Part shown: piece by piece, positions 3,125 through 3,739 of the stretch
Layout: each line of letters begins with the position of its first letter
Position numbering within the stretch: the stretch's first letter is position 1
Assembly: GCA_021780155.1 (NCBI GenBank)
Contig: JAJXZH010000024.1
Span: 1 to 55,099, forward strand
Origin: a bacterium
GTDB lineage: Bacteria > Patescibacteriota > Minisyncoccia > UBA6257 > JAGOQP01
Direction of reading: 5' to 3'
Length of the DNA stretch: 55,099 bases
Notes under the pieces: model-generated
The model's database searches: none
The model's input: the letters and a program-made list of their open reading frames with translations, nothing else
Told to the model about the DNA's origin: nothing
Translations under genes and position numbers: made by a program

Positions 3125-3551
3125 AAACTGATTATACCACCAAAGGCAACCAAACAATAAACGAGATAAAAAAAGTTCGATATGCCCCAAGATAAACAGA
3201 ACACAAAAGATTGATTTTAAAAAATAATTTTTATCAGATCTTTCTATTTCTATAATAATTTTTGTTATTAATAAACTATTTTGTCTATCAATCCCCTTGC
3301 CGGACTTTTTCTAAAAATTTTTTTGTCTTGCCGGACTTTTTAATAAATTACACATTTCAATGCCAAGTTATAAATCCTTTTTCAAAAAATAAAACAAGAC
3401 ATCAAAAAAAGCTAGTATCCATGCCGAAAGTGAGTTTCCGCATGAAACCTATCTTTTTTAAAAAATGGTAAAAATAGTGTGAAACATTCGTTTTTCAAAA
3501 AAAGTCACCTATCGCATGAATACTGGCTTTTTTGAAATTGTTTCACAAAAA

Positions 3552-3567
3552 TGTTTCACGTGAAACA
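3552..3567. promoter_or_regulatory. parS-like centromere site 1
   Basis: TGTTTCACGTGAAACA perfect palindrome matching the bacterial parS consensus. Confidence 0.85.
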
Positions 3568-3605
3568 TTTTTAGCCATATTTTGATGGTCAAAAACGAGA
3601 TAAAA

Positions 3606-3621
3606 TGTTTCACGTGAAACA
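3606..3621. promoter_or_regulatory. parS-like centromere site 2
   Basis: TGTTTCACGTGAAACA. Confidence 0.85.
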
Positions 3622-3685
3622 TTTTCTTTCAAAATAATCCGGCAAGGTAATTATTTGCCTTGCCAAGCTCTTTGCCGGACTTCAT

Positions 3686-3701
3686 TGTTTCACGTGAAAC
3701 A
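3686..3701. promoter_or_regulatory. parS-like centromere site 3
   Basis: TGTTTCACGTGAAACA. Confidence 0.85.
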
Positions 3702-3739
3702 TTTTCTTTCAAAATAGTCCGGCAAAAGTAGTTTAAAAA

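What the first reader, a model, noticed from the sequence alone, without database searches (positions are those of the whole stretch)
3540..3730. Triple parS cluster, two copies fused to a second repeat
Seen: TGTTTCACGTGAAACA occurs three times in 150 bp. Copies 2 and 3 are part of a duplicated ~40-bp module, parS-ATTTTCTTTCAAAATA(A/G)TCCGGCAA. Established: this 16-mer matches the conserved ParB/CTPase-loading site found near oriC in many bacteria. Inference: this is the chromosome centromere of a reduced genome, amplified as a module together with an unrelated repeat. No parA/parB is visible in this window.
Basis: partly seen in the sequence, partly recalled or inferred. Interest (0 to 1): 0.75.

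Follow-up and report, generated by a model that had tools for sequence, protein, structure and literature searches.

The report
Replication origin and centromere around yraN
The three identical sites are the genome's only ParB-loading (centromere) sites, and comparison with relatives indicates they sit on the chromosome's replication origin, beside DnaA sites locked into the yraN gene and a second repeat whose copies cluster there and inside one gene for an uncharacterised DNA-binding protein.

Summary
Confirmed: three perfect parS sites (3552, 3606, 3686). Copies 2 and 3 head a 40-bp module (98% identical). They are the only parS sites (up to 2 mismatches) in this 707-kb genome, a Wolfebacteria-like member of Paceibacteria. 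A ParA-ParB pair lies on another contig, so the centromere reading holds. dnaA and dnaN are in the window, 6 kb away.

(2) yraN, just downstream, holds an inverted DnaA-box pair 164 bp apart in ten family genomes. Seven of the eight codon-frozen invariant positions of yraN are those boxes. One relative has lost yraN there but kept the boxes. (3) The "unrelated repeat" is not unrelated. In most family genomes AGTCYGGCAA clusters almost only here and inside the coding sequence of one winged-helix gene (30768-31682), above synonymous-shuffle expectation. That gene carries a DnaA box upstream in 5 of 11 genomes.

Most likely: an origin-centromere fused with yraN, with accessory sites for the winged-helix protein (binding inferred). 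Main rival: an ordinary autoregulator of itself and yraN; one distant genome, where repeats follow yraN away from the origin, supports it.

The parts
3552..3567 (.). parS copy 1 (perfect palindrome)
3606..3621 (.). parS copy 2
3686..3701 (.). parS copy 3
3606..3645 (+). composite module: parS, 16-bp spacer, TCCGGCAA
   Evidence: same 16-17 bp gap in G001, G002, G010
3686..3725 (+). composite module, second copy
3297..3304 (-). TCCGGCAA site (AGTCCGGCAAG)
3328..3335 (-). TCCGGCAA site (AGTCCGGCAAG)
3672..3679 (-). TCCGGCAA site
3740..4195 (+). yraN (UPF0102); alternative start at 3767
   Evidence: PF02021 6.5e-17
3809..3817 (-). DnaA box ATATCCACA in yraN; codons GCC TGT GGA TAT invariant in 10 genomes
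3962..3993 (.). AGTCCGGCAAG - TTATCCACA - CCTTGCCGGACT: DnaA box between inverted TCCGGCAA sites, inside yraN
3973..3981 (+). DnaA box TTATCCACA, 164 bp from the first box; codons AGT TAT CCA invariant in 10 genomes
3952..3960 (-). weaker DnaA-box-like TTTTCCACA (G000 and G002; TTATCCACA in G001)
8510..9631 (-). dnaN
9797..11176 (-). dnaA
30768..31682 (+). gene for four-helix-bundle + disordered linker + winged-helix protein
31275..31456 (+). array of 7 TCCGGCAA copies (6 AGTCCGGCAA) inside the linker coding sequence
30693..30701 (-). DnaA box TTATCCACA upstream of the winged-helix gene

Best explanation
The locus is a combined replication origin and centromere. ParB, encoded elsewhere in the genome, loads at the three parS sites (known family function, inferred here). 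DnaA binds the inverted box pair embedded in the adjacent yraN gene, and replication starts within this roughly 0.7-kb region (inferred from skew minima and codon constraint). The interleaved TCYGGCAA sites most likely bind the four-helix-bundle/winged-helix protein of gene 30768-31682. That gene carries an array of the same sites in its own coding sequence and often a DnaA box upstream, so protein and origin would cross-regulate: an accessory origin protein that organises the origin or times initiation (inferred, not shown).
For: parS: unique in genome; ParA/ParB present. Synteny: parS lies beside yraN in nearly all family relatives examined and in nine loci of other families. Skew minimum: G005 at 124,646 with parS at 124,646/124,873 and dnaA 6-7 kb off; G001 at 17,000 with parS 16,867-17,014; G034 at 96,500 with parS 95.5-95.8 kb and yraN 95,902-96,255, dnaA 98.4 kb. 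DnaA boxes: exactly 164 bp apart in ten genomes, one of them (G001) with TTATCCACT. 28 invariant degenerate residues, 8 with a single codon, 7 of these being the boxes (chance 21/3,108,105 = 7e-6). G007 lost yraN there but kept both boxes. Second repeat: AGTCYGGCAA in G007 13 of 13 and in G010 16 of 17 copies at the two loci; 9 of 11 winged-helix genes beat 1000 of 1000 synonymous shuffles. DnaA box within 200 bp upstream of that gene in 5 of 11 genomes, P about 3e-9 if genomes are treated as independent.
Against: No binding data. In the window itself the cumulative skew does not dip at parS: it is lower at about 11 kb near dnaA (72 vs 119), though only 3.5 kb lies to the left. G007 skew is flat over 150-160 kb, and G002's lowest value is 66.5 kb against parS at 70.1 kb. 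In G103, of another lineage without canonical parS, yraN carries CGGCAA repeats about 37 kb from the skew minimum at dnaA, so repeats can follow yraN rather than the origin. Only two strong DnaA boxes are conserved, few for an oriC. In G005, G006, G008 and G011/G012 the AGTCYGGCAA count at the origin is low or zero, although looser forms or TTTCCGGAAA occur.
Confidence: 0.6

Rival explanations
1. The parS cluster is the centromere, but the second repeat is simply the operator of a transcription factor: the winged-helix protein represses its own gene and yraN, and has no origin role.
For: One site ends 14 bp before the yraN start (3718-3725) and others lie inside yraN; in G103 the repeats stay with yraN away from the skew minimum; in G104 a cluster lies upstream of the p29929 gene and another inside a tyrosyl-tRNA-synthetase-like gene.
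Against: Two sites lie about 400 bp upstream of yraN (3297-3335); composite parS-16/17 bp-site modules; yraN was lost from the G007 locus but sites, boxes and parS remain; DnaA box upstream of the winged-helix gene in 5 of 11 genomes.
Confidence: 0.3
2. oriC is at the dnaA upstream region as in most bacteria; the yraN DnaA boxes are a regulatory or titration site next to the centromere.
For: dnaA 6-7 kb away; two TTATCAACA near-boxes upstream of dnaA in the window; window skew lower near dnaA; G103 minimum at dnaA.
Against: Skew minima at parS/yraN in G005, G001 and G034; no strong DnaA box upstream of dnaA is conserved across the family.
Confidence: 0.2
3. The repeats are mobile palindromic elements or DNA-uptake signals that happened to land near parS.
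For: Short, partly in inverted pairs, in permissive coding regions.
Against: Only 17 AGTCYGGCAA in 707 kb, 12 of them at two loci; uptake signals are dispersed in high copy; no longer shared element beyond about 10 bp; same two loci across genera.
Confidence: 0.05

Closest known systems
Chromosomal ParABS centromere (parS TGTTNCACGTGAAACA)
   Same: Identical 16-mer, clustered, near dnaA, ParB/ParA present, relatives conserved
   Different: Composite modules with a second repeat; placed beside or within the origin in front of yraN; ParB motif reads GQRRLM instead of the usual GERRxR
DnaA-dependent oriC
   Same: Conserved DnaA boxes, AT-rich DNA, skew minimum, near dnaA/dnaN
   Different: Boxes lie inside the yraN coding sequence, about 6-7 kb from the dnaA upstream region; only two strong boxes conserved
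Accessory origin regulators and their site clusters (such as AdpA at Streptomyces oriC, PMC3411110)
   Same: A DNA-binding protein with proposed sites at the origin, linked to DnaA
   Different: Unrelated architecture (four-helix bundle plus winged helix); sites also packed into its own coding sequence

Membership tests
ParABS centromere | parS palindrome matching consensus, more than chance | tested here: met
ParABS centromere | ParB-family protein and ParA in genome | tested here: met
ParABS centromere | origin-proximal and not scattered | tested here: met
ParABS centromere | ParB binds parS and CTP | not testable with these tools
   needs EMSA/ChIP and a CTPase assay
DnaA-dependent oriC | cluster of DnaA boxes | tested here: inconclusive
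   two strong conserved boxes plus weaker ones
DnaA-dependent oriC | GC-skew minimum at the site | tested here: inconclusive
   G005, G001, G034 yes; G007 flat; G002 about 3.5 kb off; own window no
DnaA-dependent oriC | autonomous replication or unwinding | not testable with these tools
   experiment needed
DNA-uptake sequence | dispersed at high copy genome-wide | tested here: not met
DeoR-type winged-helix regulator | N-terminal HTH_DeoR with C-terminal sugar-sensing domain | tested here: not met
   the HTH is C-terminal, the N-terminus a helical bundle

The most novel reading that the evidence does not exclude
Paceibacteria have a lineage-wide, previously undescribed origin protein (four-helix bundle plus winged helix) whose sites are woven into the parS/oriC region and into its own coding sequence, coupled reciprocally to DnaA. 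Lineages use site dialects (AGTCCGGCAA, AATTCGGCAA, AATGCGGCAA, AATACGGCAA).
Probability: 0.4. Interest if true: 0.85.

Novelty: new variant of a known kind. Interest (0 to 1): 0.7.

Why it matters
Almost nothing is known about how Patescibacteria start replication and segregate chromosomes. My searches of the held library found no paper describing parS or a mapped oriC in Parcubacteria. The locus gives a concrete, testable origin-centromere, shows DnaA sites fixed inside a protein gene at synonymous positions, and names a candidate origin-binding protein with its probable sites.

Tried and rejected
DNA-uptake-sequence reading: rejected, because the 11-mer occurs only 9 times in the genome, all at two loci. 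Structured RNA at parS: no Rfam match there, only three tRNAs in the window. Protein-level repeat in the winged-helix linker: rejected, since the motif is read in two to three frames and exceeds synonymous shuffles. DnaA boxes in yraN outside the family: not found in the other-family yraN loci scanned, apart from single or near boxes. Fold search of the winged-helix protein: only weak matches (best 2gsc four-helix bundle, E 0.014; generic winged helices).

Full report
Observation. They are the only parS sites with up to two mismatches in the genome (707,709 bases, 35 contigs, 99.67% complete). A ParB-family protein (ParB_N 3.6e-29, TIGR00180 175 bits against a cutoff of 58) follows a ParA gene on contig C10. 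Its closest solved relatives are chromosomal ParB, Spo0J and Noc.

Surroundings. The window also holds dnaA and dnaN, so the cluster is 6 kb from the initiator gene. Immediately downstream is yraN, followed by yebC, ruvC and a penicillin-binding-protein gene. Relatives of the same family keep parS next to this gene block. parS next to yraN also occurs in nine loci from other families of the order. Named relatives are Candidatus Wolfebacteria and other Paceibacteria.

Origin. Cumulative GC skew has its minimum at parS/yraN in G005 (124,646; parS 124,646 and 124,873; dnaA 130.5-131.9 kb), in G001 (17,000; parS 16,867-17,014; dnaA 23.3-24.6 kb) and, in another family, G034 (96,500; parS 95.5-95.8 kb; yraN 95.9-96.3 kb; dnaA 98.4-99.7 kb). 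G007 is flat around parS and G002 is about 3.5 kb off. The window itself does not show the dip, but its contig ends 3.5 kb to the left of parS.

DnaA boxes in yraN. In ten family genomes an inverted pair, TGTGGATAT and TTATCCACA (TTATCCACT in G001), lies exactly 164 bp apart inside yraN. Equal spacing alone could follow from protein conservation. However, among 28 invariant degenerate residues of YraN only eight use a single codon in all ten genomes, and seven of those are GCC TGT GGA TAT and AGT TAT CCA, the two boxes. Chance is 21/3,108,105, about 7e-6, and the other 20 columns on the same tree vary. In G007 yraN is no longer at the locus, yet both boxes (141 bp apart) and parS remain. The only trace of YraN there is a weak SYPHFSGN match over the second box. 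Apart from parS and its flanks, the only 12-mers shared by eight or more of the eleven loci are the two boxes.

Second repeat. AGTCCGGCAAG occurs nine times in the genome: four at parS/yraN, five inside gene 30768-31682. With the looser AGTCYGGCAA, 12 of 17 copies are at those two loci. In G007 it is 13 of 13 and in G010 16 of 17, while G005, G006 and G008 have few. The gene encodes an N-terminal helical bundle, a disordered linker (131-236) and a C-terminal winged helix. Eleven orthologues keep an array in the linker. Copies are read in two or three frames, and nine of eleven genes exceed all 1000 synonymous-codon shuffles. Selection is thus on DNA, not on a peptide repeat. Five of eleven carry TTATCCACA within 200 bp upstream (P about 3e-9 if genomes are treated as independent). 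More distant homologues mostly carry arrays of AATNCGGCAA variants in their coding sequence. In G104 and G105 an inverted pair of that genome's own variant lies beside yraN, and in G106 yraN and its flank carry the ATGCGGCAA variant of its winged-helix gene. In those lineages the motif is also found elsewhere in the genome. In G103 the repeats sit in yraN about 37 kb from the skew minimum, which keeps the yraN-operator rival alive.

Interpretation. Shown by computation: unique parS cluster, ParA/ParB, synteny, skew minima, codon-level constraint, two-locus repeat. Inferred: DnaA and ParB binding, initiation at this point, and the winged-helix protein binding the repeat. The composite is a variant of known ParABS and DnaA-oriC systems; the winged-helix partner would be new.

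Noticed in passing
L004:1297-2298 (ParB, contig C10): The ParB CTP-binding motif, usually GERRxR, reads GQRRLM in this genome's only ParB; relatives were not checked.
   Followed up: no
window 3398-3560: Two hairpin-like elements upstream of parS (AAAAAAGCTAGTATCCATGC...GCATGAATACTGGCTTTTTT); similar stretches precede parS in relatives such as G005 and G010. Possibly bidirectional terminators.
   Followed up: no
G010:C9 about 73.9-74.5 kb (L063): A near-identical stretch of roughly 200 bp holding parS and four TCCGGCAA sites is duplicated about 400 bp apart.
   Followed up: partly
L154 (G105:C48): A genome without canonical parS has several variant palindromes (TGTTTGTCGTGAAACA, TGTTTACCGTGAAACA) beside yraN, suggesting a shifted ParB specificity.
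   Followed up: no
window 32140-32330 and 36207-36362: Copies of a TGGATTCCAAATCAAGTTTGGAATGACA repeat unit (43-bp tandem array; 83-bp repeat).
   Followed up: no
window 24140-29950: 1936-aa protein with lamin-tail domains and a staphylococcal-nuclease domain, beside the winged-helix gene in most family relatives.
   Followed up: no
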